Below, piece after piece: positions 8,522 to 22,689 of a DNA stretch of 35,757 bases. Made by a program: the position numbers and the translations under genes. The notes under the pieces are model-generated. The model saw only the letters and a program-made list of their open reading frames with translations. It was not told the origin of the DNA and made no database searches. Numbering within the stretch: position 1 is the stretch's first letter; each line of letters starts with the position of its first letter. Source of the DNA: Arenimonas sp. (GTDB lineage Bacteria > Pseudomonadota > Gammaproteobacteria > Xanthomonadales > Xanthomonadaceae); assembly GCF_022842045.1 (NCBI RefSeq), contig NZ_JALHQI010000032.1, positions 1 through 35,757 on the forward strand, read 5' to 3'.

Positions 8522-9316
8522 ATGGGAATCTGGCGATTGATTGCGCACCATGATGATCCGTATCGCGCAATTGAAGAGATGAAGGATCGTAGTCGCATTG
8601 CAATCGGCTGGACCGCGATTGGAGACCTGCGCCAGCTGGATATCCAAGGACCGTCAGGTATCACAGCGCTAATATCGGATAGTTATCCAGAGCTCGATAA
8701 CGCTCATTTGGGAGGACCAAGCCTTTGGAATCTCTACCAGAACATGAAACTTGGCGACCTAGTCATTCTCAACGCCAGGAGCAGGCGCGTCTGCGTCCTT
8801 GAGGTAACAGGCCCCTATATTTACGAGGAAGGATTGGGACAGGTTTTGGGTTACGCACACCAACGGCCAGCGTGTCTTACTGACTTAAACCCCGACGACC
8901 TATGGAATAGATCTGGCTTCAAAGTTTCCCATGGTCAGAATGTGCGCTGGACGCTCGCCGAATGTTCAGAGCCAGCCACGGCCAAGGACGCGATTTACAA
9001 AGAAGGGCTGCGATACTCAATTTTATCAACCGCGATTGAGCGCAATCCCGTCGCACGCCCGAAATATATTGATCAGTACGGATGCAGGTGCTTCGTGTGC
9101 AGCTTCGATTTCAGAAAGACCTACGGAGAGCTTGGCGACGGATATATTCATGTGCACCACAGGACCGACATATCAAAGAGCGACGGCGTGTATGAGGTGG
9201 ATCCAATACGTGACCTAGTGCCCCTCTGTCCCAATTGTCATGCAATGATCCATAGACGGAGTACGTCGATTTCCGTTGAAGAGCTGGCAGCGATCTACTC
9301 TCTGAAGAATGACTAA
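8522..9316 (+). CDS. EVE-like/HNH endonuclease, probably modification-dependent
   Basis: The 264-residue product begins MGIWRLIAHHDDPYRAI; GGAG lies 5 bases before this ATG, so it is preferred over the TTG at 8507. Residues 1-110 (IAIGW, LWNLYQNMKLGDLVILNARS, VCVLEVTGPYIY) resemble the EVE/PUA-like modified-base reader found in front of nuclease domains. Residues 160-250 form an HNH domain: C190-x2-C193, YGELGDGYIHVHHRTDI with H212/H213, DPIRDLVPLCPNCHAMIH with N238, C236/C239 and H244. HNH proteins of this McrA-like class cut DNA carrying modified cytosines, giving defence against modified phage DNA. The EVE assignment rests on pattern recognition; the HNH part is clear. The gene starts 85 bases after the IS, so its promoter is either in that gap or supplied by the IS. 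Its codon use is less GC-rich than the core genes, consistent with transfer. Confidence 0.85.
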   Translation: MGIWRLIAHHDDPYRAIEEMKDRSRIAIGWTAIGDLRQLDIQGPSGITALISDSYPELDNAHLGGPSLWNLYQNMKLGDLVILNARSRRVCVLEVTGPYIYEEGLGQVLGYAHQRPACLTDLNPDDLWNRSGFKVSHGQNVRWTLAECSEPATAKDAIYKEGLRYSILSTAIERNPVARPKYIDQYGCRCFVCSFDFRKTYGELGDGYIHVHHRTDISKSDGVYEVDPIRDLVPLCPNCHAMIHRRSTSISVEELAAIYSLKND

Positions 9317-9328
9317 CCATCACATCAG

Positions 9329-9348
9329 GCCGACCAATTCTGCTCGGC
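9329..9348 (+). terminator. Weak stem-loop after the HNH gene
   Basis: GCCGA and TCGGC pair across a 10-base loop, 12 bases after the HNH stop, followed by only TT. It is a possible but weak intrinsic terminator. Confidence 0.3.
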
Positions 9349-9554
9349 TTGGGTTAGACGTACTTCGGTATGGTGCAGATTCCGCTGCTGGCCGGAGTCC
9401 GATGTCAGCCGCCCCAAGAGGTAGAGGTCGCCGCCGTCCAAGCGGGATCACTAAGCCAACAACATAATCGCCGGTCAGTGCTTGCCAGCGCGAAGGTCAA
9501 AGGTGACTAGCGCCCGCTTTTGATTGATCGATATTGGATCTTGTCTTTCTTGGT

Positions 9555-10355
9555 CTAGACATCAAGGTTTCCCTGCACATCAATGTCGAACTTTGCATCT
9601 CTGAGATAGACGACCCCCCCTTCTTCGACCTTCGTTCCGGTAACGCTACAGCCTGCCAACATCAGCTTGGTGGCTGCGGCCAATGTCATGCCTTCAACGA
9701 TCATCGGCTTGCCCTTGGTGATTTCCACCCTACAAGACGTCTGGCTCTCGATGCCGACGCCTGTCAGCTGGCCAATCACCTGATTTGGGGCTTTCGCCAA
9801 CTTGGGCAGTGCTTCCAGATCATTCAGGCTCGGCATGGGCACCTCGTCCTCCGCGCCATCGATGAGCCGGCGAATCGTCGCTCGAGCGCCAACCTCTCGA
9901 AGGTGCGCCAGATGCCACAACAAGGCGATTCGCGCGTCGGGAATATGCAGGGCGCGATGGCTCAACGGCTCATCTAGTCTGGCGTTCGCCTCAAGTTGAC
10001 GCCGGTTCTCCAACAAAGTGCTGATCAACACGCTCAGGGCATCTTCACCTTCAAGCAGCGTTCCCTGCGGTTCATCCTTCCAGTACAGGTCCTGCTCGTA
10101 GCTACCATCTGTCGAGAACACGCCCCCTGTAAGTGTCGGCCCTGCCCTTTCAGCGGCGAGGCCGCTGACGGCTTTGCCGGTGCTCCGCAGGAGCCCCTCA
10201 TCGGTGCCTAGTCGACCTCGACTCTCCCGCTCAAGATGCGGGTGATGGACAACGAAGGAGTAGGGCGGTTCAACTGCCGCATCCTGCTCGGTCTGATCGA
10301 CTTGGTCGCCCGGGACGTGACTGCTATTGGGCTCGGGGCAATCGGTGTTCGGCAT
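9555..10355 (-). CDS. Unrecognised protein downstream of the giant recombinase
   Basis: I do not recognise this 266-residue protein. The first 60 residues are polar and proline-rich (MPNTDCPEPNSSHVPGDQVD) and probably disordered. The middle has helical, charged segments (SVLISTLLENRRQLEANARL; ARIALLWHLAHLREVGARAT). The C-terminal third looks like beta structure (CRVEITKGKPMIVEGMTLAA, EEGGVVYLRDAKFDIDVQ). There is no signal peptide, membrane segment or obvious catalytic motif. The ATG at 10355 is preceded by AAGGATGAG. It is read in the same direction as the giant recombinase gene, 238 bases after its stop, with a hairpin in the gap. It may be an accessory factor of the same mobile element; this rests on position alone. 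Confidence 0.7.
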   Translation of the reverse strand: MPNTDCPEPNSSHVPGDQVDQTEQDAAVEPPYSFVVHHPHLERESRGRLGTDEGLLRSTGKAVSGLAAERAGPTLTGGVFSTDGSYEQDLYWKDEPQGTLLEGEDALSVLISTLLENRRQLEANARLDEPLSHRALHIPDARIALLWHLAHLREVGARATIRRLIDGAEDEVPMPSLNDLEALPKLAKAPNQVIGQLTGVGIESQTSCRVEITKGKPMIVEGMTLAAATKLMLAGCSVTGTKVEEGGVVYLRDAKFDIDVQGNLDV

Positions 10356-10449
10356 GGCAGCTCATCCTTGAGCCAAGACGCCGGCGAAATGCCGACCGGG
10401 AAGCTTGGCCGACACCTATTCAATCTCACGAGCACAGAGTTTGGTGGGC

Positions 10450-10478
10450 CTAACCTCCCCCAAAATGTGGGGGATTAG
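10450..10478. other. Stem-loop between recombinase and downstream gene
   Basis: CTAA, a CC bulge, TCCCCC, a 7-base loop (AAAATGT), GGGGGA, TTAG: ten base pairs interrupted by a two-base bulge. It lies between the recombinase stop and the next start in the same direction. There is no long T-tract, so it may be an attenuator, RNA-processing site or recombination-site arm rather than a classical terminator. Confidence 0.35.
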
Positions 10479-10593
10479 CTCCAGCGACACCACTGGCGCA
10501 ACAGTTGACCAGGAAGTGAGCTGATCGTTTCCTTTGCGTGGCCGGGCACTTCGCGTCTTGGCTTCATCGCGAACGCCCGAGAGGCTCGACCGT

Positions 10594-13500
10594 TCAACAC
10601 AGCAGCCTCAGATCGCGACAAGCCGCCAATCCCGTTGCAACCCAGACCACGGCCAAGACCCATTCCAGCGCCGGTTCGCTGCCGTAGACACCCTTGCCCC
10701 TCTTGGCTAGGTGGTACCCGACATCTCCGGCATCGGTCGATCTGCTTACAAGCTCACATCCGGTCATTTCAGCCAACGCGTGCAGTCGCGCAACAGCCGC
10801 CGGTTCAATCAGTGCCACCGATCCCCGAGGCACCTTGATGCGCGCGCAGTTGACCCACTCCTGCGCCAAGACGCCCGCACCCTGGGGCCTGCGGGCCAAC
10901 CGCGCCATTAGCTCAACGTATACCGGTGTCTTTCTGGGCCTGCAGAGCGCGTCCTCGGACAGCGGCAGCCCGGCACGACGCGTCAGCTCATTGCATCGAG
11001 CAGCGATGGCTTTGACGGTCGCCGCGTCCACGTCGACGACGTCTACTACGTCCTCAGGCGGGAAACCCCTGGCCAACGCGTTCATCACGCTCTCCACTGC
11101 CCGTAGCGAGAAGCAGGTCAGGACGGATTGGTACGCGGGCGGATCGGGAAGTTCCACATCAGGCCAGTCGGGATCGGGCATGTGCAGTGCCAGAGCCAGT
11201 CGCGCTTTCTCGTCCGGCCCGTCGCTTGCGTTTTCAGCATTGCGCCACCGCTGCCAACGCTGGTCCAGCGTGGCTGCGGGCAGTCCTGAGAGCACGGAGG
11301 CCGTGCTCCGTTCCGCGGCCGTCTTTACGGACCTTTCCAGGTCCATCCATGCCGCGGGATCCCCCAGGTAGGACGCGATCGGCGTCGCGATGGTCGCGTG
11401 CCCGCAGACTTTCAGGACGCGGTAGATATCCCGGGCCTTCGGGCTCTTGTTTCGGCGAACTTCTACGTGGCGGTTCCGGACGCCCCGCTTTCGGAGCCAG
11501 TAGGGTCGTCCGCGCGGTTGCCGCGTCCGCCACCGAACCAGCTCACCCAGTCGATCAAGGAAGATCCGCCTGGGGAATCGTTCGCCCACAGGTTCATCAA
11601 GCTTCGTGAAGAGCGGTACATCGAGCCAGTCCTCTTCTTGCCAAGCGCGGCGCAGCCCCTGGATCCATCCCACGAACCAAGCCCTATGGTCCTGCCAAAC
11701 CTCGCCATCGAGCGGAACGAATCCGGCTGAAGTTCGCGTCTTGATCTCTGAGTACTTGCCCGCAGTTCGCAGCTGGATGTAATCCCCGCCCGGGCCCACG
11801 TGGATGTCGGCCAGAGTGAGTCCATAGATGGACTGCGGTCGGCTGTTGGATGCCTCGAGCAGCAGGGCTGATCCAAAGGACAGCTCGCGCGCCCGTCGCT
11901 CAATGGGGTCGAGACCATGCATCGCCCCCGGCGAGAGGTTCGTCGCCAGCACGCCAAGGATGTCATTGATCTCGACGTCAGGAACGATGGCTGGATCTTG
12001 GCCGCGGATGGCCTCCCCCGCGTGCAGGTAGGCCAGATCCCAGTTCGGCGCGGCAATGTCATGCTCATTCTTCACGAACCCAAGGAATCGCTCGACCTCA
12101 TCGAGGATTTCCGGCTTGTTCTTGTTCCTGGACAGGACGATTGACGCCAAAATTGCATTAGTGATCGTCTCGCCGTCGACCTCCCGAAGGTCGACCGTGG
12201 CGGGCACCGCCGCCAGCGACGGGGCGATACAGTAGTAGATCCGGTAGATGGATCGAAGCTTCATTCCGCCTTTCGACTTAGGCCCGCCCGTGACCATCAG
12301 GTGCTTCACATAGGCGAGGGTCATTCTCGGCAGGGTTGGTGTCTCGCCTAGCTCTCGAAGTAGCGTCTTCACCTCGGGGAGAAGCTGCTTGATTCGACTC
12401 GTGGGCGGCGAGGCCGGCGCGCCTGCAATCTCGCCCTGATACTCAGCGTGGAAACACCTCATCAGCATGCGCACTTTCTGGTCGCCATTGGGCTCCGGGC
12501 ATTTGCGACGTCGACTGGTCTTTCGTTCTGTTTCGGCGGATGCGTCCGCCGAGCCGTCAGGCTCTCCCTGCCCGGGAATTGAAACGCCATCCTCTGCGCC
12601 AGCCGCGCGTTCGGCCCGGACACTGGCGGGCCGGACCACCTGGTTCATGACCAGCCGTTCCGGCCCAGTCAGCTCGGCGGCACCGGCCGTGCGCAGGGTC
12701 GCGATCATCCAATCGCGCAGTTCGGTTTCGGAGTTGCCCTTCGGCGCACGCGCGGGCAGGAACTCCCTCAGGAACCGCCCGAGTTCGGCCGATCTCTCGC
12801 CGCACACCTTCTCGACCATTTCCGGCCAGTCCGACGCCTGTCGCAGCCGGTGGAGCAATTGCGCTGCCTGGCCAGTGATGGGTATGTGGCCTTCGCCGAC
12901 TGGAACACGCATCAGCCATCCGTTCGCTTGGCTGTGCTTGGCGTCTTCAAGGCCCAGGGCAATTTGGCGAGCCTCTTTGAGGCTGCGATAGGGCGTATGG
13001 GCAAGGATTGCCCAGATGCCGAGATGTGCCTTCCAGGTCGCCCAATCTCTCGGCGCCTCCGTGCCCGATGCTCCTGCCACCAGGGCCGCGCGGAGTTCGT
13101 CTGCAACGGCCGAGGCGAGGCCGACGCCGGGGACGAAGGGACTCGGAACCGATTTGAACGAGGGGTGGTGAATCGGGGGTAGATAGGCGAAGCACTGGCC
13201 GCGCCTGACAGCCGATAGGAGCGCTACGCTTAGTATCCGCGCCCCCAAGTAGGCGTGGATGGGCTCGTATCTCCTCGCCCGCAGCGGAGCCAGGACAGCC
13301 TCGACCATGTCCGGCGTGATGCGTGGTCGCTTGGCGTCCGTATCCTTGAGCCGAAGATGAAGCTCCCCGTGGTCACCTTTGGATAGGTAGGGCACGAGCA
13401 CGGCAGCGGTTGGCAGAAGCCCCAGACCCCTTATCAGTTCGCGTTGGACGACTGGGGTGGTTTCCCGGCGCCGCTCGTTCAGGGCGCGCTTGAGCTCATG

Positions 13501-15900
13501 GATTCGCCGCTCGAAGTGCGAACGATGCGCCTGCGCGGCTTGGTTAAAATCTCGTAGTGGAATATCCGCGAGGATGCGGCCTGGGTCCTTGGGCTGGTGA
13601 CCTGCGAGCCAGCCCACCGACTCCAGCCATCCGTCAATCGGCCCAGCGAGGATCTCGCCCAAGACAACCGGCGGATAGGGCGCCATGTCGGACACGGCGT
13701 GGACTTCGCCTTCCATCCAACCCATCTGGAAGTAGCGATGCTCGGGATCCACCTTGGCCAGAATGAGGGCTTGGTCGAGGGCATGGCGATGGAGATTGGG
13801 CCTCTCCGCCCATGCCGCGGGCAGTCGAGCCAAGAGCTGGCCGACATCCAGGGCCTCGATCGATGCATCGGGAGCTGGGAGGCTGAAGACAGGCGCCGTT
13901 CCTCGAAGGATCTTGCGAGCCAGCTCCCGTGCCGCAACTTCAGTCCGCGAATCCTGTGCGAGCCGACGCAAGTCGCCCACGAAGGACTCGAGGGCTCCGA
14001 CAAATCTCCAGCCTGTCCCGACCAGGCGGGTAAGCCGCGCAGGATCCGACCGCTTGTCGCGGATCAGCGCCAAGGCCTTGGTCGGCAGGAAGTCGGCTAG
14101 GTGGATCTCCCCCAGCGCCAAGAATGGCCGGTGACCTGTCGCCAGCATCAGGTGCAGCGCGAGGCAATCTCGCTGCCGCCGCCAGTCATCCGCGGTCCTC
14201 ATCAACTTGGGGCGCCCGCGACGCGGCTCGCTGGAAACACCAACCTCTGCCCACGCCGCCTCGAAAGCGTCGCGATGAGGACGGACCCGTGAACCAACCA
14301 TGTGGGCGCACTCAGCTCGCAGGGCCGGGGTCAGCAGGGCGCCGACATCCCGACCTTTGGGCTTCTCGACATCGTTCGCCTCGGTGGCGGAACTCGGATT
14401 CTCAAGCCCCACGTTGGCCAAGGCCGCCTGGTAGGCAAGGTCCTCAGCAGGGAAGGCGCCATAGTAGGTCGGGGCCGGGCTCGCTCCGAACGTGTCCCCG
14501 AACGCGATCTGGGCGGCATCTTGGCCGAGCGTCCCGGCGAACTCCGCTGCCAGCCGCATGCGATAAGCCGTGCGAGTGGCAGACCGGGTCGGCTCGAATA
14601 CATCCAGGGTCCGGCGCACTTCCGTGGCCGCCAACCAGGCCTTGCGGTCCTTTGGCGAGACCTCCTCGGTCAGAAGCAGCCCCGCGTGATGGTGCGAGTC
14701 TTTCTTGGCCCTAAGGGCCAGTAGCCGGTGAAGAAGACCAATCGCAATCGGGGATATGGGAAAGAGAATGTCGCCACCCGACGGCTGCCAGAACTGGAGG
14801 GCTTCCGATTTGGGTGAATACGCGCCCCTGGGCCTCGACTCCGGGCGCCTCAGGGCACCGACATGGAGGTCGATGATGGGCCCGGCAACGGCTTCGCCAG
14901 CGCCAAACGCCGTGGCCTGTGCCTCGACCCTGCTCAGGCCGACCTCAATGCCCAGGAGATGATCGAGCCCCTGTTCCGCCAGCGTCAGGTCGTTGGCATC
15001 CAGTCCGGCCTGGATTAGGCCTATCGTGCGTACCCAGGCCTGGCGCGCCACCGGTCGCGGGAGGATATTGTCGGGATCTCTCAGTAACTCCGGGCTGGAT
15101 CGCCGATGGAGCTCCTTGCCGATGGCAGCCGCAAGTCGGTTCCTTAAGCCGTCGCATTCCCTGGCCTCGTCAACCGCATCCAAGTCCCACGCGGGGACAG
15201 GATCCGGCTCGGAGGGATCCGCGAGGAGAGGGTCGGGAGGCTCGGTGCCCGGGCCGTCGAGCGGGCGGGGCCGCGCTTCGTCCTCGTCGGCGGCAATCTC
15301 CAGAGGCCTGAGTAACCTCGCGACCGCGGCTGCTAGCCACTTCGTCCAAGCGAGGTCGAACTCTCCGTGCCCGGTGATGACCCCGGGGTCGGGGGAGAGG
15401 GTCCGAAGGTATGCGATTCGCTCCTGGAGCGCCTTCAATCCTTCGCAATCGCCGACGGTTTCGAGGAGCTTGTTGCCCTTTCCGTCCGACAGGCCACGAA
15501 GCCAGCTGCAGCACGGTCCGAGCTCCTTGTCCGACCAGCCGGTCAAGCGGAGCTCGATCAGGAGCCATGCCAGGGTCCGCTGGAGGGCAATCCCACCGAT
15601 TGGCGGAAGGCTGAAGAGGGCCGTGGCGAGGGGGTATGCCTCAGTCTTGCCTTTGGTGGCAATGTCGCTCCAGTCCTTTCGACCTGCGGCGAGCACCACC
15701 CACTGCGCGCGGTTCCGCGCCACGAACCCGAGGGTCCTGCGGAAAGCCTGGATCCCTTGCGGGGGCCTGTCGGCGAGATGCAAGTAGACGCTTGCCAGCG
15801 CCCCTTCCCATCGGCGGTGAAAAACGGATACTGAGCCTAGACAGGCGTCTGCCCAGCGCCGATCCGTGGGTTTCGCAGCCGCTGCCCCGCGGTCGCTCAT
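10594..15900 (-). CDS. Giant protein with two tyrosine-recombinase-like regions
   Basis: This is a 1768-residue protein, several times longer than ordinary tyrosine recombinases. The C-terminal half holds a helical region like a core-binding domain (about 1180-1320), then a recognisable catalytic domain: R1354 (ASNSRPQSIYGLTLADI), a Lys-rich hairpin (GKYSEIKTRTSAGFVPL), H1478/R1482 (RHVEVRR), H1501 (CGHATIAT) and Y1511 (ASYLGD). The order and spacing of the last three fit box II of the family. About 250 further residues follow. The N-terminal half has a second candidate: R591 (LALHLMLATGHRPFLAL), IRDK, then NLHRHALDQ (702-710) and MGWMEGE. Here the box II arginine would be D709 and the usual MGH is MGW, so this region may be inactive. 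A charged linker (SAETERKTSRRRKCPE) near residue 1165 separates the halves. The start is 200 bases from a tRNA-end repeat. The product is probably an integrase, but no specific family is named with confidence. Confidence 0.8.
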   Translation of the reverse strand: MSDRGAAAAKPTDRRWADACLGSVSVFHRRWEGALASVYLHLADRPPQGIQAFRRTLGFVARNRAQWVVLAAGRKDWSDIATKGKTEAYPLATALFSLPPIGGIALQRTLAWLLIELRLTGWSDKELGPCCSWLRGLSDGKGNKLLETVGDCEGLKALQERIAYLRTLSPDPGVITGHGEFDLAWTKWLAAAVARLLRPLEIAADEDEARPRPLDGPGTEPPDPLLADPSEPDPVPAWDLDAVDEARECDGLRNRLAAAIGKELHRRSSPELLRDPDNILPRPVARQAWVRTIGLIQAGLDANDLTLAEQGLDHLLGIEVGLSRVEAQATAFGAGEAVAGPIIDLHVGALRRPESRPRGAYSPKSEALQFWQPSGGDILFPISPIAIGLLHRLLALRAKKDSHHHAGLLLTEEVSPKDRKAWLAATEVRRTLDVFEPTRSATRTAYRMRLAAEFAGTLGQDAAQIAFGDTFGASPAPTYYGAFPAEDLAYQAALANVGLENPSSATEANDVEKPKGRDVGALLTPALRAECAHMVGSRVRPHRDAFEAAWAEVGVSSEPRRGRPKLMRTADDWRRQRDCLALHLMLATGHRPFLALGEIHLADFLPTKALALIRDKRSDPARLTRLVGTGWRFVGALESFVGDLRRLAQDSRTEVAARELARKILRGTAPVFSLPAPDASIEALDVGQLLARLPAAWAERPNLHRHALDQALILAKVDPEHRYFQMGWMEGEVHAVSDMAPYPPVVLGEILAGPIDGWLESVGWLAGHQPKDPGRILADIPLRDFNQAAQAHRSHFERRIHELKRALNERRRETTPVVQRELIRGLGLLPTAAVLVPYLSKGDHGELHLRLKDTDAKRPRITPDMVEAVLAPLRARRYEPIHAYLGARILSVALLSAVRRGQCFAYLPPIHHPSFKSVPSPFVPGVGLASAVADELRAALVAGASGTEAPRDWATWKAHLGIWAILAHTPYRSLKEARQIALGLEDAKHSQANGWLMRVPVGEGHIPITGQAAQLLHRLRQASDWPEMVEKVCGERSAELGRFLREFLPARAPKGNSETELRDWMIATLRTAGAAELTGPERLVMNQVVRPASVRAERAAGAEDGVSIPGQGEPDGSADASAETERKTSRRRKCPEPNGDQKVRMLMRCFHAEYQGEIAGAPASPPTSRIKQLLPEVKTLLRELGETPTLPRMTLAYVKHLMVTGGPKSKGGMKLRSIYRIYYCIAPSLAAVPATVDLREVDGETITNAILASIVLSRNKNKPEILDEVERFLGFVKNEHDIAAPNWDLAYLHAGEAIRGQDPAIVPDVEINDILGVLATNLSPGAMHGLDPIERRARELSFGSALLLEASNSRPQSIYGLTLADIHVGPGGDYIQLRTAGKYSEIKTRTSAGFVPLDGEVWQDHRAWFVGWIQGLRRAWQEEDWLDVPLFTKLDEPVGERFPRRIFLDRLGELVRWRTRQPRGRPYWLRKRGVRNRHVEVRRNKSPKARDIYRVLKVCGHATIATPIASYLGDPAAWMDLERSVKTAAERSTASVLSGLPAATLDQRWQRWRNAENASDGPDEKARLALALHMPDPDWPDVELPDPPAYQSVLTCFSLRAVESVMNALARGFPPEDVVDVVDVDAATVKAIAARCNELTRRAGLPLSEDALCRPRKTPVYVELMARLARRPQGAGVLAQEWVNCARIKVPRGSVALIEPAAVARLHALAEMTGCELVSRSTDAGDVGYHLAKRGKGVYGSEPALEWVLAVVWVATGLAACRDLRLLC

Positions 15901-16100: not shown

Positions 16101-16150
16101 GCGCCTTCCGAAGCCATTGGTCGGGGGTTCGAATCCCTCCAGGCGCGCCA
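16101..16150 (+). repeat. tRNA-Arg(CCG) 3'-end repeat, putative attachment site 1
   Basis: The sequence reads from the anticodon loop (CTTCCGAAG, anticodon CCG) through a T-arm (GGGGGTTCGAATCCCTC) to GCGCGCCA. The 5' half of a tRNA is absent: the bases before it do not complete the anticodon stem. It matches repeat 2 (18569-18617) at 48 of 49 positions. Such 3'-half tRNA copies are typical scars of tyrosine-recombinase integration. Homology with repeat 2 continues to the right beyond the tRNA end (CCCCTGTGAC, AATCTG). Confidence 0.85.
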
Positions 16151-16229
16151 AACCCCCTGTGACAAATCTGGGACAGATCTGGGACAAGACCTGATCGGGC
16201 CCCCTGCCCGGATTGAGTAAAGGCGCGCC

Positions 16230-16850
16230 ATGCCCCAGCCCATCCTCCAGATCCGGGTCGAGCTCCAGGAGATCGAGCCGCTGATCTGGCGCCGCCTGCA
16301 GGTGCCGGGCGACTACACCTTCTGGGACCTGCACGTCGCCATCCAGAGCGCCTTCGCCTGGACCGACACCCACCTGCACGAGTTCCGGCCCTGGGGGCAG
16401 CGTGACGGCACTCCCCGCTTCGGCATGCCGCTGGACGACTTCGACGACAACCCACCCTTGCCCGGCTGGGAGCACCGCGTGGCCGACGTCCTGACCCGCG
16501 CCAACCCGCGGCTCGAGTACGAATACGACTTCGGCGACGGCTGGGAGCACACGGTCGTGCTTGAGGAGATCCTCGAGGCGGCGCCCGGCAAGAAGTACCC
16601 GCGCTGCACCGCCGGCGAGCGCTCGGCACCGCCCGACGACTGCGGTGGCCCGGGCGGCTACGAGAGCCTGCTCGAAACCCTGGCGGATCCCGAAGACCCG
16701 GAGCACAAGTCGTCCCACGTCTGGGCCAGCAGCCAGAAGGGCCAGCGCGGCAAGTTCGACCCCGAGGCCTTCGACGAGCAGCAGGTGAAGTTCGCGAACC
16801 CGGCGCCGCGGCTCAAACGACTGCTGGCGTACCTGGCATCCCGGTGTTGA
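16230..16850 (+). CDS. pRiA4b ORF-3 family protein
   Basis: The 206-residue product begins MPQPILQIRVELQEIEPLIW and shows the family hallmarks: RRLQVPGDYTFWDLHVAIQ, AFAWTDTHLHEFR, YEYDFGDGWEHTVVLEEIL and YPRCTAGERSAPPDDCGGPG. The family is named from a plasmid pRiA4b gene; its biochemical role is not established to my knowledge. AAAGG lies 6 bases before the ATG. It is the first gene after tRNA-end repeat 1 and converges with the AbiE operon. A diverged copy of its start follows tRNA-end repeat 2, so it seems to be a constant part of the cassette rather than random cargo. Confidence 0.9.
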   Translation: MPQPILQIRVELQEIEPLIWRRLQVPGDYTFWDLHVAIQSAFAWTDTHLHEFRPWGQRDGTPRFGMPLDDFDDNPPLPGWEHRVADVLTRANPRLEYEYDFGDGWEHTVVLEEILEAAPGKKYPRCTAGERSAPPDDCGGPGGYESLLETLADPEDPEHKSSHVWASSQKGQRGKFDPEAFDEQQVKFANPAPRLKRLLAYLASRC

Positions 16851-16855
16851 CGGCC

Positions 16856-16876
16856 GGCCCCGGCTATCGGGGGGCC
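16856..16876. terminator. Stem-loop between convergent pRiA4b and abiEii genes
   Basis: GGCCCC (16856-16861) pairs with GGGGCC (16871-16876) across a 9-base loop that contains the abiEii stop codon. It lies 5 bases after the opposing gene's stop and may act in both directions. There is no T-tract. Confidence 0.35.
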
Positions 16877-17733
16877 TGCGGCGTCTCCAGAAGCGGAGCC
16901 ACGACGCCAGCCAGCTCGGCCACAACCTCTGCAAGCCCAGGCGCCTCCAGCCGACCCCTTTCGAGGAAGGCCCGCCATTGCCTTTGCTTGGCGTTGTCCG
17001 AGGCGAAAACCTCCGTCAGCCCCACCGGCATGGAACCAGGCATTGGGGTGTCCCGCCGCGCGAACGTGGCGGACACGGCGTTTCGAAGCACCGTCGGATC
17101 GAGCCGGCCCTCCCGGGCCAGGCTGAGCAGATCGAAGTAATCCTTCATTCGGCTGTTGGCCATGCCCAGCACGACGATCGCCTCAAGCTTCTCGGCGAAG
17201 ACGGTTTCGCGCGGATAGATGCGCAGCGAGGGCGCAGGCAGGTCATCGAGCAGGGTCGGCAGCTCGGCGTCCTCGGGCCCAGGCGTCACGGCATCCCCGA
17301 ACCCGATATCCCACTGGACCAGGCATTCCGCCGTCCCTAGTCGGGCACGCAGGCTCACGCGCAGGCCGTCGTAGCGCGCCGTTTCCCGGATCTCGCTGAC
17401 GCGCAGGCCCGCGAGGTCGAAGGCCAGGCCGTCGTCGACCTCAAGTTCGCAGAGTTCGCGGACGATGGCTTCGATCCGCGCCGGATCCGCCGCGCCAAAG
17501 CCCAGGAAGTCCGCGTCGCGCGTCGGCCTGTGCTCCTGGTCGAACCAGTGCCGGAAAAGCATGGCGCCCTTGAGCAGGAAGTCATCCCGGTGGCGCGAGA
17601 TCGAGAGCCGATACAGGAGACGCTCGACGGCGTATCGATCGAGCGTGAGCTGGAACTCCTCGCCCGACGTCTTCGCATGGTTCAGCAGCCGCTGGCGGAT
17701 CGAATCGACGCGGGCTGGCGAGGACGCACTCAT
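16864..17733 (-). CDS. abiEii: AbiEii-type nucleotidyltransferase toxin
   Basis: The 289-residue product is a type IV toxin of the AbiE abortive-infection system, a DNA-polymerase-beta-like nucleotidyltransferase. Visible motifs: FLLKGAMLFRHWF (glycine motif near 55), D73-x-D75 in TRDADFL (metal-binding), WDIGFGD (D142), EKLEAIVVLG (K182) and NSRMKDYFDLL (K197, D198, D201). All family key residues I know are present, so it looks active. The start at 17733 shares an ATGA overlap with the antitoxin stop, which implies translational coupling; an earlier start at 17889 would overlap the antitoxin by 160 bases and is rejected. AbiE toxins act by modifying a host RNA, arresting growth when phage infection upsets the balance. 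Confidence 0.93.
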   Translation of the reverse strand: MSASSPARVDSIRQRLLNHAKTSGEEFQLTLDRYAVERLLYRLSISRHRDDFLLKGAMLFRHWFDQEHRPTRDADFLGFGAADPARIEAIVRELCELEVDDGLAFDLAGLRVSEIRETARYDGLRVSLRARLGTAECLVQWDIGFGDAVTPGPEDAELPTLLDDLPAPSLRIYPRETVFAEKLEAIVVLGMANSRMKDYFDLLSLAREGRLDPTVLRNAVSATFARRDTPMPGSMPVGLTEVFASDNAKQRQWRAFLERGRLEAPGLAEVVAELAGVVAPLLETPQAPR

Positions 17734-18326
17734 GCCACCGATTCCAGATAGGGACGCATCACGTTCGCCATCCGAAGCTGGCTCGCCAGCCGCCAGAGTT
17801 CGTCGTTGCTCGCCCGACGCTCGCGGCGCACCTGGGACAGCGCCTCCAGCGCCACGTCTAGGCCAATCCTGTTGCGGAACTTGAAACAATCCACGACGGT
17901 CCGTGCGACCCCGGTAACCCGAAGCGGCACGCCGTCGCGGTCATGGGTTTCGATCCCGGCCGAGAGGCCGGCACCCGAATACCGAACGACCCGCAGCGAA
18001 GGCCAGTCCAGCCTGGGCGCGTGCCGGCCGGCGGCAATACCCAGCCAGACCGAGTGCGGTGCCTGTGTCGTGAGCCCGTGGAAGCGCAGCGCCGTCAGGA
18101 GGCAGAAGAATCCGTCGGGCACGCGGCGCGCGACGATCTGCAGCCCCTCGTCCGCCGACGGCGCCCGACCGGGCAGCGAGTAGACGCCACGCGCCAGCCT
18201 GACCAGCTCACCCCGTTGCACCAGGCGCGCGATCTGGGCGCCCTCCAGCCCGGCGGCCCGGAGGTCGCGGGCCCGGGCACTGCCCTGAGCTTCGAGCAGG
18301 TGCTTGGCTTTGGCGTGGGGATCCAT
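17730..18326 (-). CDS. abiEi: AbiEi-type antitoxin/autorepressor
   Basis: The 198-residue product has the AbiEi layout. An N-terminal winged-helix part (ARDLRAAGLEGAQIARLVQR, GELVRLARGVYSLPG) is followed by a C-terminal neutralising region (DGFFCLLTALRFHGLTTQAP, VWLGIAAGRHAPRLDWPSLR, VPLRVTGVARTVVDCFKFRN). In the family the N-terminal domain binds inverted repeats at its own promoter and the C-terminal domain neutralises the toxin. ATG 18326 is chosen over the TTG at 18362 because the TTG lies in the predicted -35 box; the transcript would then be nearly leaderless. It overlaps abiEii by four bases. Confidence 0.9.
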   Translation of the reverse strand: MDPHAKAKHLLEAQGSARARDLRAAGLEGAQIARLVQRGELVRLARGVYSLPGRAPSADEGLQIVARRVPDGFFCLLTALRFHGLTTQAPHSVWLGIAAGRHAPRLDWPSLRVVRYSGAGLSAGIETHDRDGVPLRVTGVARTVVDCFKFRNRIGLDVALEALSQVRRERRASNDELWRLASQLRMANVMRPYLESVA

Positions 18327-18333
18327 GCCGAAA

Positions 18334-18362
18334 GATTGTTCCAATTCGGCAATCAAAGTCAA
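18334..18362 (-). promoter_or_regulatory. abiE promoter and probable AbiEi operator
   Basis: On the minus strand TTGACT (18362-18357) is followed after 16 bases by AACAAT (18340-18335). Transcription would begin within a few bases of the ATG at 18326. The inverted repeat GATTG-N11-CAATC (18334-18354) covers the -10 box and spacer, as expected for an autorepressor site. Confidence 0.55.
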
Positions 18363-18568
18363 CTATGTGTGCGATTTTGTAACGCTCGCTGTACGCCCCG
18401 GGAGGTAGCCTCCACTCCATTGACCGTGCCGCGGAGAGCTTTGGGGCGAGGCGCCAAATGGCCTCAAGCGAACTCCTTGCAGGTCGGGCATGGCGCGTGC
18501 AGAAGCCGGCCAGATCGCTTCGAGCGAAAGGAGATGGTCTGTAATCCTTTGCCGTCACTGGGATTTCA
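18363..18568. other. Non-coding stretch before tRNA-end repeat 2
   Basis: No gene is seen. Its last 28 bases (about 18541-18568) resemble the bases before repeat 3: both have a CTTTG/ATCG-like segment and CTGRGATTTC just before the repeat. The rest is unremarkable. Confidence 0.5.
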
Positions 18569-18617
18569 CGCCTTCCGAAGCCATTGGTCGGGGGTTCAAA
18601 TCCCTCCAGGCGCGCCA
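18569..18617 (+). repeat. tRNA-Arg(CCG) 3'-end repeat, putative attachment site 2
   Basis: Identical to repeat 1 over 49 bases except TTCAAAT for TTCGAAT in the T-loop. It again contains only the anticodon-loop-to-CCA half. To its right the conserved tail (CCCCTGTGAC, AATCTG) and a pRiA4b-gene start follow, as after repeat 1. To its left the bases GGGATTTCACGCC resemble GAGATTTCGCGCC before repeat 3. It is shared by the two cassettes. Confidence 0.85.
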
Positions 18618-18694
18618 AGACCCCTGTGACCAATCTGTGCCCTGGCTGTGCCAAATTCTTCCTGGCAACCCGGCCGCGTTGAGTAAAGGCCGCC

Positions 18695-18781
18695 ATGCCA
18701 ACGCAAATCCTCCAGATCCGGATTGAGCTCGAGCGTATCGAGCCGCTGAGTGGGCGTGGCTTTTGGTACCGGCTGGCCTAA
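18695..18781 (+). pseudogene. Remnant start of a second pRiA4b ORF-3 gene
   Basis: ATG 18695 follows the same GAGTAAAGG context as the intact gene and encodes MPTQILQIRIELERIEPLSG, matching the intact start MPQPILQIRVELQEIEPLIW at most positions. Similarity then stops and the frame ends after 28 codons. The DNA differs at many silent positions, so it is a diverged relative and not a recent copy. The breakpoint lies at the end of hipA on the other strand. Confidence 0.8.
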
Positions 18782-20133
18782 CCCGGCACAAGGATTGCCG
18801 CCCCGGTTGCCGCTCGCTTTGTTGCCCTCACGAACAGGTCCAACGTCCTGCTGACCGTGTGATCGTCGATCCCCCGCGGCATCATCGCTTCCGTCGCGGC
18901 AGCGATATGGTCCACATTGCCTGCCAGCTCGTCCAGCATCGCCGCCGGGTTGAAATCCAATCCCAACGCGCGGGCAGAATCCTGCCAATGCCGCAGGCGT
19001 ATCTCTTTGTGGGCGAAGTGCCTGTTCTTGGTCCCCGGGGGCGCCATCGCCATATGCAGCTTATGGCGATCAAACGTCCCCGCCTTGCCGCCTATCACGG
19101 GGTAGGTTGTCATCACATCGTACAAGGGTGCCAAGCGGTAGCCGCCTCCCGGCTCCAGCCGGAGGCTGAAATTCTTGGCATGGCCGTCCGTCGCCGCCAA
19201 CAGCCAGAACACGATGTTCGCGCGCAAGAAGGTCGCTCGATCCCGCTGGGCGTCACGACTGAATCTCAGCAGCTCGTCGATCCGTTGGATCCCCGGCCCG
19301 CCGTCCCGGTGCTCATACTTGGCCGCGCGAGGCGCGCCCAGCGCCTGGCACATGTCCTCTTGCGGCAGGCGAAGCAGGTATCCACCCGGCGCCATGGCGC
19401 GATCGAAGCGTTCGACCGCCAGGACCCGCTGGTCCTCGAAGCATGCGATCTGTGTCGGCGCTATTTCAAACCCCAACTGACCCATCAGGACCGAACACAG
19501 GTGTTCATTGTCCACTGAATGGTGGAACGGGACAGGTGGATCTCCCACCATGCCCATCGGCAGCTTCAGGATATGGGTTGTCGGTGTGACGCCCAATGGC
19601 CGGTTCCAACGGCCATTCCAGAAGGTGAGCGCCGTCTTGGACTGCGCGCCGGCCAACGAGAGGCGCAGTTCGCCGCCAACGCTTGGCGCAAGCGTCGCGC
19701 CGCGCAGCACGGCTGCCACGTCTGCATCCGAGAGAGCCTCCATCCGCATCGCGGTGACGGGCTCCGGGACTTCCCCTTGCGGGAGAAGAGTGACCGCGCC
19801 GACACAGTCACGGCCATAGTGGGCCAGCAAGTCGAACTCAGATGTGCTGGCGAGACGCGCGTTGTCACGCATCGCCCGACGGAATTCGTCCCGGTCAGGC
19901 AGCAGATTCTCGAAGTAGCGGACCACTGCCTCGCCCACCACGGGCCTGCCGGTTGCCGGGATAGACAGCGAGATCGGACGGAACTGGGGCGAGGCCTGCC
20001 AGGACGTCGAATAGGTGAACTGATGGGAGCCCGCCGGTGTGATCTGCCACAGCCCTACCTCCTCGCCATTCATCCAGACCATCAGCGCTTTGGCAGGCTT
20101 CGCCTTCCTGCCCGGGCGGACCGGCGTCACCAT
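18778..20133 (-). CDS. hipA: HipA-family Ser/Thr kinase toxin
   Basis: The 451-residue product, close to the length of known HipA proteins, has the full kinase set. There is an N-terminal HipA_N-like region (VWMNGEEVGLWQ, SLSIPATGRPV, YFENLLPD), a Ser-containing loop RLSLAGAQSKTAL (S159, equivalent to the autophosphorylated Ser), HILK (K190, ATP binding), VERFDR, the catalytic LLAATDGHAKNFSL (D316) and the metal-binding APLYDV (D339). HipA toxins phosphorylate a translation factor such as glutamyl-tRNA synthetase and cause growth arrest; the exact target here is inferred. It starts inside the hipB stop region with a 7-base overlap. No truncation is seen. Confidence 0.93.
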   Translation of the reverse strand: MVTPVRPGRKAKPAKALMVWMNGEEVGLWQITPAGSHQFTYSTSWQASPQFRPISLSIPATGRPVVGEAVVRYFENLLPDRDEFRRAMRDNARLASTSEFDLLAHYGRDCVGAVTLLPQGEVPEPVTAMRMEALSDADVAAVLRGATLAPSVGGELRLSLAGAQSKTALTFWNGRWNRPLGVTPTTHILKLPMGMVGDPPVPFHHSVDNEHLCSVLMGQLGFEIAPTQIACFEDQRVLAVERFDRAMAPGGYLLRLPQEDMCQALGAPRAAKYEHRDGGPGIQRIDELLRFSRDAQRDRATFLRANIVFWLLAATDGHAKNFSLRLEPGGGYRLAPLYDVMTTYPVIGGKAGTFDRHKLHMAMAPPGTKNRHFAHKEIRLRHWQDSARALGLDFNPAAMLDELAGNVDHIAAATEAMMPRGIDDHTVSRTLDLFVRATKRAATGAAILVPG

Positions 20134-20378
20134 GACGACTCCGGCGTCCGCCTCGGCCGTAGTACGAACTCCATCCCGACCAGGTTCGCGTACTGCAGAA
20201 CCATCGCCACCGTTACCTTGGATGCCCGCCTCTCGATCTGGCTGACACGGCCCTGGGTGATTCCCAACTGTTTGCCTATCTGGCCCTGGGTCATTCCGGC
20301 CTGCTTTCGCGCGGCTGCCAGCAGCGCGCCGATCATGTCGGGCGCCTGCACGAGGTGTTCGATTCTTGGCTGGCTCAT
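20127..20378 (-). CDS. hipB: HipB-family XRE antitoxin
   Basis: An 83-residue helix-turn-helix protein. The XRE domain covers about residues 15-70: IGALLAAARKQAGMTQGQIG, KQLGITQGRVSQIERRASKV, TVAMVLQYANLVGMEF. It ends in a short Arg/Pro-rich tail. It is the DNA-binding antitoxin partner of the HipA kinase and is expected to repress its own operon. The upstream region contains matching half-sites. It overlaps hipA by 7 bases. Similar XRE proteins serve other toxins, but the HipA neighbour settles the call. Confidence 0.93.
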   Translation of the reverse strand: MSQPRIEHLVQAPDMIGALLAAARKQAGMTQGQIGKQLGITQGRVSQIERRASKVTVAMVLQYANLVGMEFVLRPRRTPESSW

Positions 20379-20390
20379 GGTATTCGCCTC

Positions 20391-20445
20391 GCTAATACGA
20401 GTCTTATATTAGCCATAAGATATACGCAGATGATATTAGCTTCAA
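20391..20445 (-). promoter_or_regulatory. hipBA promoter and probable HipB operators
   Basis: On the minus strand TTGAAG (20445-20440) and TATCTT (20422-20417) are 17 bases apart. A perfect inverted repeat GCTAATA-N9-TATTAGC (20391-20413) covers the predicted transcription start. A third TATTAGC half-site (20434-20440) touches the -35 box. This arrangement suits cooperative autorepression by HipB. Confidence 0.65.
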
Positions 20446-20864
20446 CTATTATTTTTGCAGCCGACATGGCTCGGCACAGCAGCCGCGGAACCCGCGGAAA
20501 AGCAGGCCGCTACTCCCGCCAACGTGCCATGAAAGGACCATCGGAAAGGGACGATTTAGCGTAAATCGACCTCGCTGCGAGTTGCGTTGACTGCGCGCGA
20601 AAGTCCGGACAGAGCGCTCCAAACAGATACAGGCGGCTCACAACCCTTTATCGCTGCTGAGATTTCGCGCCCTCCGAAGGCAGGTTCGAATCATGTCGGG
20701 CGCGCCATCTCCGGTTTCAGCCCCCCCTGGCCGGCCTCCACGTCCTCGGCGGCCTGCCGACGCGACCCGCCGGCTGGCACCTCTTCACGCCGCTTTACGT
20801 TCTTTGGATCAGCGCTCCCCAAGACGGGGCGGCGCCTTGCCCCGACCCACCAAAGGACACCCCC
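20446..20864. other. Island/chromosome junction without a gene
   Basis: No gene is seen over about 420 bases. It contains tRNA-end repeat 3 (20667-20707). To its right, composition becomes uniformly GC-rich and the outer-membrane protein gene follows. The promoter of that gene must lie in 20710-20860, but I see no clear boxes. Confidence 0.5.
20667..20707 (+). repeat. tRNA-Arg(CCG) 3'-end repeat, putative attachment site 3
   Basis: GCGCCCTCCGAAGGCA, then GGTTCGAATCATGTC and GGGCGCGCCA. This matches the 3' half of a bacterial tRNA-Arg(CCG) very well but lacks about 9 bases of the variable loop and T-stem present in repeats 1 and 2. Its acceptor end (GGGCGCGCCA) differs from theirs (CAGGCGCGCCA). 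It is the outermost copy, and no pRiA4b-like tail follows it. It probably marks the right end of the island. Confidence 0.75.
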
Positions 20865-21623
20865 ATGAAACACCGCCTCCTGATCCTCGCCGCGTCCTGC
20901 CTGCTGAGTACGTCCGCCCTCGCCGCCAATGGCGACTGGAGCGGCTGGTACGTCGGCATCCACGCCGGCCAAGCCAGCGGCGACGCGGATGCGCGCGTCT
21001 CCCTCGGCGGCCAGTGGTCGGCCGAATCGCAGGCCCTGCGGGACGAGGTCACCAACGACTGGTCCACGAGCTTCGACCCGAGCGACAGCACCTATGGCCT
21101 GCAGTTCGGCGTGCTGCACCAGTTCGCCAACGGCTTCGTCCTGGGCGCCGAACTCGACCACAGCCAGCTGCACTTCGAGGAAAGCCGCTCCACCGGCCCG
21201 CAGCCCACCACCACCTTCCCGTCGCTGACCTATAACTTCGGCAATTCGATCGACGTCGACTCGAAGCTGTCGCTCCGCGCCCGCCTCGGCTATGCCAGCG
21301 GCCGGCACCTGTTCTACCTGACCGGCGGCGTGGCGCGCGTGGACGCCGATGCGTCGGCCTCGGTCGCGAGCAACGGCAACTACCTCAAGCGCGGCGTGGC
21401 CAGCGAAACGCTGGACGCCACCGAGATTGGCGCCGGCTACGAGTTCGACTTCGGCAACCAGTGGTCGCTGCGCGCCGAGTACATCCGCACCGACGCCGAT
21501 GACTTCAGCTACGACACCGTCTACCAGGCGGGCAGCAGCTTCGTGACCCCGGCCTACATCGAGACCTTCCGCCAGTCGCTGGAGTTCGATTCCTTCCGCA
21601 TCGGCCTGAGCTACCGCTTCTGA
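20865..21623 (+). CDS. Outer-membrane beta-barrel protein
   Basis: The 252-residue product has a signal peptide (MKHRLLILAASCLLSTSALA, cleaved before ANG) after an AAAGGA ribosome site. The mature part starts DWSGWYVGIHAGQASGD and consists of alternating-residue strands (YGLQFGVLHQFANGFVLGAE, LSLRARLGYASGRHLFYLTG, IGAGYEFDFGNQWSLRAEYI). It ends in a terminal strand FRIGLSYRF with the C-terminal Phe needed for barrel assembly. It fits the porin-like/OmpA-like beta-barrel group of about 8 strands. No periplasmic OmpA domain is present. The specific function is unknown. A strong stem-loop lies just after it. Confidence 0.88.
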   Translation: MKHRLLILAASCLLSTSALAANGDWSGWYVGIHAGQASGDADARVSLGGQWSAESQALRDEVTNDWSTSFDPSDSTYGLQFGVLHQFANGFVLGAELDHSQLHFEESRSTGPQPTTTFPSLTYNFGNSIDVDSKLSLRARLGYASGRHLFYLTGGVARVDADASASVASNGNYLKRGVASETLDATEIGAGYEFDFGNQWSLRAEYIRTDADDFSYDTVYQAGSSFVTPAYIETFRQSLEFDSFRIGLSYRF

Positions 21624-21666: not shown

Positions 21667-22689
21667 CTAGTCCGACGGGGCCTCCACCACGTAGCCCTTC
21701 GCAGCCAGCGCCTTGAGGTACCCGCGCTCGCCCACCACCCGCGCCATCGGCAGCACCGCGACGCTTTCGGCGTGCGTGGCCAGTGCCTTTTCCGCCGCGG
21801 CCAGCCAGGCCGCCTCGACCCGCGCCGGCAATTCGCTGAAACCGCTGCTTCTCGCCAGCCCGCTGCCCAGCAGGGCGTCGGTGCAGGCCTTGGCGTTGTC
21901 GGCGTAGGGCAGGGCTTCCAGCGTGGCCAGGTCACCGATGGCCCAGGCATTGGCGCGCAGGGCGAGCGTGTCGAGATCGTTCTCGACCTGGTCGAGCGTG
22001 GTGCGGAAGCAGGCCAGGTCGTCGAGCCCGCTGCGCCGGAATTCCTTGACCGCGGCCTTGGCGTCCTCGATCACCAGGCTCACCTCCGGCTGCTCCACCG
22101 GCACGTCGGCGCGCTTGGCGGCGCGGCGCACGGCGCGGCCGACCACGTCGCGCCAGGACAGGTCGGCGCGGTCGAAGGCCTTTTCGCGAAGTTCCATCGC
22201 GGCCAGGATCGGGCGACGCTTCTCGATGCCGCGGTCGCGGCCGAGATACAGCGCCTTGAGCCGCTGCCAGCGCGCGAAATCGGCGGCGGCCAGCACATCC
22301 TCGAGCAGTTCGCCTTCGGGATTGTTGCGCGCCTTCATCAGCGACGGCACCAGGAACAGGCCGCCCAGCGCGGCGCCCTCGGCATCCACGCGCACCGTCG
22401 GCGGCATCAGCAGCACGCCGGCGGCGGCGACGCGCCGCTCGACGTCCAGCGAGTTCCATTCCATGCGCTTGGGCAGCGGTGCCAGCGTGCCCAGCACCCA
22501 CAGCACGCGGCCATCGCGCGAGACCTTCCACATCCCGGGACCGGGCTGCACGCCGCTGACGACGATGGTGTCGAGGGTGACCGGTGGCGACGTCGGCGCC
22601 GGGTCCTCGGCGGCGACGGCGGGCAGCGACGGCGCCAACGCAAGCGCCAACGCCAGGCCCACGGCCGCCAGCTGCGTGGCCGACATCAT
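21667..22689 (-). CDS. GumN/TraB-family protein
   Basis: The 340-residue product has a signal peptide (MMSATQLAAVGLALALALA ending AVAA). The family-like opening is GPGMWKVSRDGRVLWVLGTL, and the helical middle contains FLVPSLMKARNN and WQRLKALYLGRDRGIEKRRP. The C-terminal part (HAESVAVLPMARVVGERGYL) matches the end of TraB/GumN proteins (a catalytic-fold Gly-Tyr-Leu segment). GumN belongs to this family in xanthomonads. In typical members GTLH-like motifs carry a metal-binding His, but here GTLAP lacks it, so activity is doubtful. It follows the 194-aa secreted gene by 6 bases and is probably co-transcribed with it. Confidence 0.75.
   Translation of the reverse strand: MMSATQLAAVGLALALALAPSLPAVAAEDPAPTSPPVTLDTIVVSGVQPGPGMWKVSRDGRVLWVLGTLAPLPKRMEWNSLDVERRVAAAGVLLMPPTVRVDAEGAALGGLFLVPSLMKARNNPEGELLEDVLAAADFARWQRLKALYLGRDRGIEKRRPILAAMELREKAFDRADLSWRDVVGRAVRRAAKRADVPVEQPEVSLVIEDAKAAVKEFRRSGLDDLACFRTTLDQVENDLDTLALRANAWAIGDLATLEALPYADNAKACTDALLGSGLARSSGFSELPARVEAAWLAAAEKALATHAESVAVLPMARVVGERGYLKALAAKGYVVEAPSD

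What the first reader, a model, noticed from the sequence alone, without database searches (positions are those of the whole stretch)
16101..20707. Serial toxin-antitoxin cassettes bounded by tRNA-Arg 3'-end repeats
Three copies of a tRNA-Arg(CCG) 3' half (16101, 18569, 20667), all in one orientation, delimit two units. Each unit has the same layout: tRNA end, conserved tail, pRiA4b ORF-3 gene start, then a toxin-antitoxin operon on the opposite strand (AbiE in unit 1, HipBA in unit 2), then a conserved pre-repeat segment and the next tRNA end. Neither unit encodes a recombinase. This looks like an array of small exchangeable TA cassettes inserted one after another at one tRNA site. The repeats and layout are seen in the sequence; that tyrosine recombinases use tRNA 3' ends is established; the cassette idea is inference.
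Basis: partly seen in the sequence, partly recalled or inferred. Interest (0 to 1): 0.88.

Follow-up and report, generated by a model that had tools for sequence, protein, structure and literature searches.

The report
Serial toxin-antitoxin cassettes at tRNA-Arg
Two 2.1-2.5 kb units, each holding one toxin-antitoxin pair and no recognised recombinase gene, lie in a row in an Arenimonas-like bacterium, bounded by copies of the end of its arginine tRNA gene, and one is 97% identical to a unit at that tRNA gene in another genus; they are likely small mobile cassettes that would be moved by the integrase of defence islands sharing the site.

Summary
In detail: three tRNA-Arg(CCG) 3' ends delimit two units (AbiE, HipBA) without a recognised recombinase. 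The cassette idea is also well supported. The genome has five copies; the intact tRNA lies on contig C24, followed by a third cassette (pRiA4, another HipBA) and an integrase-bearing defence island. Relatives carry, in the same frame at this tRNA, AbiE of two types, HipBA or Fic. The AbiE unit measures 2465-2489 bp in five genomes and is 96.6% identical in Thermomonas, where ubiA, a few kb upstream, is 78%. Units share a right arm (three 11-bp repeats, then usually pRiA4), and many share a left arm before the anticodon-loop core. Within the genus sample, the strict right-arm pattern occurs in the same five genomes that carry the C24-type integrase (5/5 against 0/22). Best reading: non-autonomous TA elements resembling cis-mobilizable elements, integrated serially and probably moved in trans by that integrase. 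Excision is untested; ten arm-bearing genomes have no close integrase match; the cassettes' left arm was not found at island ends. New points: TA-only cargo, a constant frame, and insertions that seem to bring a spare tRNA. Novelty: a variant of a known kind.

The parts
16105..16150 (+). core 1: tRNA-Arg(CCG) 3' half; end of the left island, start of unit 1
16151..16187 (+). right arm (tail) of unit 1: three 11-bp repeats CTGKGMCNNNN
16230..16850 (+). pRiA4 ORF-3 gene (PF07929), last part of the constant 5' block
16864..17733 (-). AbiEii toxin of the unit 1 type IV TA pair
17730..18362 (-). AbiEi antitoxin
18543..18571 (+). left arm (pre-repeat) at the end of unit 1
   Evidence: arm plus core scores 30, shuffled maximum 13.5; arm alone 20
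18572..18617 (+). core 2: tRNA-Arg 3' half between units 1 and 2
18618..18654 (+). right arm (tail) of unit 2
18695..18756 (+). remnant of a pRiA4 ORF-3 gene (start only)
   Evidence: 18572-18749 is 96.6% identical to C24:19308-19485
18778..20133 (-). HipA toxin kinase of unit 2
20127..20378 (-). HipB-like antitoxin of unit 2
20640..20670 (+). left arm at the end of unit 2 (weaker match)
   Evidence: arm plus core scores 17; arm alone 12
20671..20707 (+). core 3: degenerate tRNA-Arg 3' end of the second type, right border of the array
20865..21623 (+). chromosomal outer-membrane beta-barrel gene, right flank of the site in relatives
10594..15900 (-). 1768-aa ORF at the right end of the neighbouring island; possibly tyrosine-recombinase-like
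   Evidence: no Pfam, NCBIfam or PADLOC match, one weak PHROG of unknown function; conserved residues

Best explanation
Units 1 and 2 carry a TA pair each and no recognised recombinase gene, and they are likely non-autonomous integrative cassettes that entered one after another at the tRNA-Arg(CCG) gene by recombination in its anticodon-loop core. Shown by sequence: cassettes of this kind have a constant 5' block (tRNA 3' half, three 11-bp repeats, usually pRiA4 ORF-3), a variable TA pair, and in 12 cases a shared left arm before the next core CTTCCGAAGCC. Inferred: left arm, core and right arm together would form attP on an excised circle; the integrase encoded on co-resident defence islands (C24:34838-36124), which carry the same right arm, would act on it in trans; each insertion would displace the older tRNA 3' half and whatever follows it, so that older units lie further from the tRNA. 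The TA pairs would stabilise the array, and AbiE may also act against phages; neither was tested.
For: Same frame, different cargo: pRiA4 with AbiE in 7 genomes (G000, G210, G307, G147, G112, G059, G076; an eighth, G154, has both genes interrupted), pRiA4 with HipBA in 3 (G000 on C24, G246, G155), pRiA4 with Fic in G086, another AbiE type in G155. Against relatives with whole pRiA4 at this tRNA but other cargo, similarity to unit 1 stops at 16840-16850, the pRiA4 stop codon, in 5 of 5 (C24, L040, L042, L051, L056). Unit transfer: unit 1 and Thermomonas sp. S9 96.6% over 2479 columns, ending inside the next core; ubiA 77.7%. AbiE unit length 2465-2489 bp in the 5 of 7 genomes where both ends were found. 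Left arm: 12 hits at 17 or more, each at a core and on one strand, shuffled maximum 13.5; arm without core scores 10-25 at these 12 against 3-9 at the other 53 cores. Right arm: 34 matches in 24 of 395 family genomes, 0 for the reversed control. Integrase: 14 of 24 arm-bearing genomes against 0 of 22 arm-less genus members; within the genus 5/5 against 0/22, Fisher p=1.2e-5; same contig as a right arm in 8 of 14. Sister comparison: G164 and G000 become alike at CTCCGAAG behind the C24 cassette (94.3% over 174 bp). The five called genes of the window units match no recombinase family.
Against: No excised circle or excision event was seen. Ten of 24 arm-bearing genomes have no integrase relative at E 1e-60 (some of these genomes are incomplete). 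The 14/24 against 0/22 comparison mixes genera; only the within-genus one is like for like. The cassettes' left arm was not found at the ends of the large islands in the fetched stretches, so the helper could be another integrase; nor was it found at the ends of some units (G155 AbiE unit, second G086 unit, G059, G260). The left-arm query and the right-arm pattern were made from ends seen here, so source sequences match by construction. Nine of 21 truncated cores have lost sequence just 3' of the anticodon stem, so many cassettes may now be immobile. The C24 insertion is not a clean one-step pair: G000's whole front tRNA is of type T1 and G164's of type T2. In G147, AbiE and HipBA stand in one unit with no core detected between them. 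AbiE pairs alone occur on plasmids without this frame. C24 and C32 are separate contigs.
Confidence: 0.7

Rival explanations
1. The units are remnants of larger integrase-bearing islands that decayed in place and kept only their ends and TA genes, which resist loss.
For: Displaced cores often carry deletions (9 of 21); unit 2 has a pRiA4 remnant; A. fontis has a decayed right arm, a lost distal 3' half and no integrase relative.
Against: The AbiE unit has nearly the same length (2465-2489 bp) and ends in 5 genomes of three genera and is 96.6% identical between two genera, so it spreads as this small unit.
Confidence: 0.15
2. The units move by homologous recombination between shared flanks (tRNA, tail, pRiA4) after ordinary DNA uptake, with no site-specific step.
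For: Tail and pRiA4 blocks are 80-97% identical within one genome and could recombine; the mixed T1/T2 tRNAs suggest exchange.
Against: Similarity to unit 1 ends within the distal core in Thermomonas, A. fontis and G210, and the sequences beyond that core differ among the three.
Confidence: 0.12
3. The 1768-aa protein beside repeat 1, not the C24-type integrase, is the recombinase for this site.
For: It lies about 200 bp from a core in G000, G147 and G246, and its C-terminal alignment of 4 sequences keeps R, K, GH and Y in an order like tyrosine recombinases (motif recalled).
Against: No informative family match; the structure model was poor (mean pLDDT 49.6); the C24-type integrase has a clear integrase and arm-binding domain.
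Confidence: 0.1

Closest known systems
Cis-mobilizable elements (CIMEs) and tandem accretion, e.g. the Dehalococcoides ssrA islands (PMC3146451, passages read)
   Same: Elements without an integration module stand in tandem at one RNA gene beside integrase-bearing islands; 15 of 31 ssrA islands lack the module, and the authors suggest they might be CIMEs.
   Different: Here the window and C24 units are only 2.1-2.7 kb, the cargo is TA pairs inside a constant frame, and the candidate recombinase is a tyrosine integrase at a tRNA anticodon loop rather than a serine recombinase at ssrA.
Additive flexible genomic islands with repeated tRNA ends (Methylophilaceae, PMC10872708, passages read)
   Same: Recurring tRNA 3'-end repeats mark islands extended at one tRNA.
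   Different: There the repeats are 20 bp of tRNA-Lys, sizes run 330 bp to 42 kb and 79-80% of proteins are of unknown function; here the arms are longer and the cargo is TA.
tRNA-dependent lysogeny (PMC10865867, abstract read)
   Same: Short common core in a tRNA gene; the element brings a tRNA of the same kind. Here a stub 5' half lies 129-132 bp before the intact tRNA in 18 of 26 arm-bearing loci.
   Different: Those are phages with their own integrase; the cassettes here have none recognised.
CALIN integron cassette arrays (PMC11389934, passages read)
   Same: Cassette arrays without an integrase that depend on one elsewhere.
   Different: The ends here are tRNA cores with integrase-like arms at a tRNA gene; attC sites were not searched for.
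Composite island CGI48 with HipAB, Shewanella (PMC8978831, abstract read)
   Same: A HipAB module stabilises a tRNA-integrated composite island.
   Different: That HipAB sits in an island that is excised when integrase and excisionase are expressed; here HipBA is the sole TA cargo of a small unit without a recognised integrase.

Membership tests
Cis-mobilizable element (CIME) | flanked by attL/attR-like sites | tested here: met
   tRNA cores at both ends of units 1 and 2, right arm at the start and left arm at the end of each; function of the sites not tested
Cis-mobilizable element (CIME) | no integrase or transfer genes of its own | tested here: met
   Pfam and NCBIfam of the five called genes: pRiA4, AbiEii, AbiEi, HipA, HipB only
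Cis-mobilizable element (CIME) | tandem with, and moved by, an integrase-bearing relative | tested here: inconclusive
   shared right arm and genome-level association with the integrase; movement not testable here
Integrative and mobilizable element (IME) | own integrase and mobilisation genes | tested here: not met
   none among the called genes of units 1 and 2
Integron cassette / CALIN | attC folded sites | not tested
   no attC search was run; the junctions are tRNA cores
tRNA-dependent integration | element supplies a complete tRNA when the host tRNA is split | tested here: inconclusive
   stub plus intact tRNA at 129-132 bp in 18 of 26 arm-bearing loci against 1 of 15 others fits it; need for the tRNA not testable, and the two window units themselves lack a whole tRNA
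Type IV TA AbiE | adjacent AbiEi and AbiEii | tested here: met
   overlapping genes 16864-18362; activity not tested
HipBA | HTH HipB next to HipA with N- and C-terminal domains | tested here: met
   PF13657 and PF07804, HipB-like HTH; activity not tested

The most novel reading that the evidence does not exclude
A family of tRNA-borne exchangeable cassettes in Xanthomonadaceae: 2-3.5 kb elements with fixed arms and a TA-only slot, shuffled in trans by the integrases of defence islands at the same tRNA, so that the tRNA works as an integron-like platform for immunity and addiction modules.
Probability: 0.4. Interest if true: 0.78.

Novelty: new variant of a known kind. Interest (0 to 1): 0.62.

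Why it matters
TA pairs are known to spread on plasmids and islands, but how single pairs come to line up at one chromosomal site is less clear (general knowledge). Here the pieces can be listed: the core, both arms, a slot with swappable TA genes, empty sites, and a candidate helper integrase. That makes trans-mobilisation of TA modules directly testable with one integrase, one cassette and one tRNA target.

Tried and rejected
Rejected: chance repeats; a fixed ancestral block (G164 and G180 lack it); a phage or plasmid record holding the whole unit (the tail pattern gave 0 hits in viral contigs; of 37 plasmid and 12 phage records with a match none covers 80% of unit 1). Led nowhere: the pattern (0 hits, badly laid out); Rfam on the array (one sub-threshold tmRNA match); the AlphaFold model of the 1768-aa protein's C-terminal part (mean pLDDT 49.6), so no fold search was run; the pRiA4 tree (no starred fork), which therefore does not date cargo swaps. 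Literature searches for this arrangement: 0 papers; 4 of 4 listed; 6 of 11 listed; some searches looked at related topics and list only their best hits. No listed title describes this arrangement, but subscription papers and preprints are not held, so absence from print is not claimed.
Full report
CHECK. The window is contig C32 of genome G000. Three tRNA-Arg 3' ends lie at 16105, 18572 and 20671, all on +. The first two have 0 and 1 mismatch in 46 bases; the third has an internal deletion and a different T-arm and is not significant alone. Genes between them: pRiA4 ORF-3, AbiEii, AbiEi, then HipA and HipB. The pRiA4 gene of unit 2 is only a remnant (18695 to about 18750).

THE REST OF THE ARRAY. 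The intact tRNA-Arg(CCG) is on contig C24:19277-19353. It is followed by pRiA4, a HipBA pair on the + strand (domains; HipA 45% identical to that of the window), a further tRNA 3' end at 22010, an island with MzaE and MzaC relatives, a C5 cytosine methylase and a Vsr endonuclease, and a tyrosine integrase with an arm-binding domain (C24:34838-36124). In relative G180 the left flank of C24 (ubiA, a small ORF, a GGDEF-EAL gene) and the right flank of C32 (beta-barrel gene) stand around the tRNA with about 150 bp between tRNA and beta-barrel gene. So both contigs belong to one site, although the gap between them was not closed.

RELATIVES. Names come and were tied to genome handles by equal contig lengths: G147 Arenimonas caeni z29, G076 A. 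fontis, G246 Arenimonas SCN 70-307, G307 Thermomonas sp. S9, G155 Pseudoxanthomonas suwonensis J47, G215 P. kaohsiungensis. At this tRNA: pRiA4+AbiE in 7 genomes (plus an interrupted pair in G154), pRiA4+HipBA in 3, HipBA without pRiA4 in G260, another AbiE type in G155, pRiA4 end plus Fic in G086 (the left end of the G086 unit is cut by a contig start). Other loci have pRiA4, whole or partial, with no TA recognised (G215, G329, G371, G143, and a second G059 contig). Unit 1 and its Thermomonas copy are 96.6% identical in 2479 columns, while ubiA a few kb upstream is 77.7% identical; the similarity ends inside the next core, at CTTCCGAAGCC. The AbiE unit is 2465, 2467, 2473, 2481 and 2489 bp long in the five genomes where both ends were found; in G147 it is fused to HipBA and in G059 no distal core was found.

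ENDS. Left of the core at many cassette ends is a conserved arm of about 30 bp. Arm plus core scored 17 or more 12 times, each at a core and on one strand, in 8 genomes of 4 genera; shuffled sequence did not pass 13.5. Since the core itself adds to that score, the arm was also scored alone: 10-25 at these 12 cores, 3-9 at the other 53. The query was made from some of these ends. Right of the core are three 11-bp repeats. A strict pattern for them gave 34 matches in 24 of 395 family genomes and none for the reversed control; variants such as the decayed arm of A. fontis are missed. In 121 genomes of the order, 19 of them from the family, one of the 102 others had it. Of 15 loci scored as arm-less, 11 have no repeat unit and 4 have one; random 50-mers with two or more units were 423 of 124,000.

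HELPER. Relatives of the C24 integrase (E 1e-60 or better) occur in 14 of the 24 genomes with the right arm and in 0 of 22 genus members without it; within the genus 5 of 5 against 0 of 22. In 8 of the 14 it lies on the same contig as a right arm. Ten arm-bearing genomes show none, so their cassettes would need a helper from outside, if the genomes are complete there. The cassettes' left arm was not seen at the ends of the large islands in the stretches fetched; this weakens the case for this integrase.

HISTORY. In G164, the nearest relative found (ubiA 96%), the intact tRNA is followed at once by an island with Dnd/Pbe relatives and a 90-91% identical integrase. The first 174 bp of that sequence, from the anticodon loop on, are 94.3% identical to what follows the C24 cassette in G000. 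So the cassette was inserted at the loop in one lineage or lost from it in the other. The change is not a single clean step, because the front tRNAs differ in type on both sides of the loop. At the right border G164 has one degenerate core and no TA unit.

SPARE tRNA. In 18 of 26 loci with the right arm, a tRNA 5'-half stub ending in the core lies 129-132 bp before the intact tRNA, against 1 of 15 loci without it (Fisher p=1e-4; loci of one genus are not independent). Elements therefore seem to bring a whole tRNA on a leader, much as in tRNA-dependent lysogeny (PMC10865867, abstract read). In P. suwonensis J47 the AbiE unit appears to sit in the stub, leaving two whole tRNA-Arg genes; in G246 an island appears to sit in the stub.

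HOW IT LIKELY WORKS. Shown: shared arms, core, variable TA slot, near-identical unit in two genera, presence and absence. Inferred: circle formation, action of the island integrase in trans, stabilisation by TA. Role of pRiA4: unknown; the only solved relative found is 2i1s, a hypothetical protein. In one locus (L081) pRiA4 follows HipA directly with no tRNA found in the 20.6 kb held, a hint of a functional link.

KNOWN KINDS. It meets the two structural tests for a cis-mobilizable element; movement by a relative is untested. It fails the definition of an IME. Accretion at an RNA gene is known (PMC3146451, passages), repeated tRNA ends in additive islands too (PMC10872708, passages). What looks new is the small TA-only cassette with a constant frame; searches listed no paper on it, but only open-licence papers are held and the lists are partial.

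Noticed in passing
L038, L041, L044, L046-L049, L051, L052, L057-L059, L066, L067, L070, L072, L123, C24 (L005:19153 and 19283): A tRNA-Arg 5'-half stub lies 129-132 bp before the intact tRNA-Arg at these 18 occupied sites, as if elements deliver a spare tRNA on a leader.
   Followed up: partly
window 10594-15900 (-); relatives in L040, L043, L108: A 1768-aa protein without informative family match at the right end of the neighbouring islands, with tyrosine-recombinase-like conserved residues in its C-terminal third.
   Followed up: partly
window 20671, L037 (two), L039, L043, L044, L060, L108, L109: Displaced tRNA 3' halves repeatedly show deletions just 3' of the anticodon stem (9 of 21 truncated copies); cause unknown.
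   Followed up: no
L038 9922, L046 4999, L047 7050 (oriented with the tRNA on +): A 413-aa ORF (weak DUF6880 match in L046) takes the place of pRiA4 directly behind the right arm in three genomes.
   Followed up: no
L081 about 8850-10615: pRiA4 ORF-3 starts directly after a HipA-like gene with no tRNA found in the locus, suggesting an operon of HipA and pRiA4.
   Followed up: partly
L123 (G164), L006 (C24), L116 (A. caeni): Islands at this tRNA carry defence-like genes: Dnd/Pbe, Mza, and a DUF1156 gene.
   Followed up: partly
L078 / G210:C179: The public record that matches this contig of a genome placed in the window's genus is titled as a Rhizobium MAG; it looks mislabelled.
   Followed up: no
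G436:C9:27574 (not fetched): The only right-arm match outside the family among 102 other genomes of the order.
   Followed up: no
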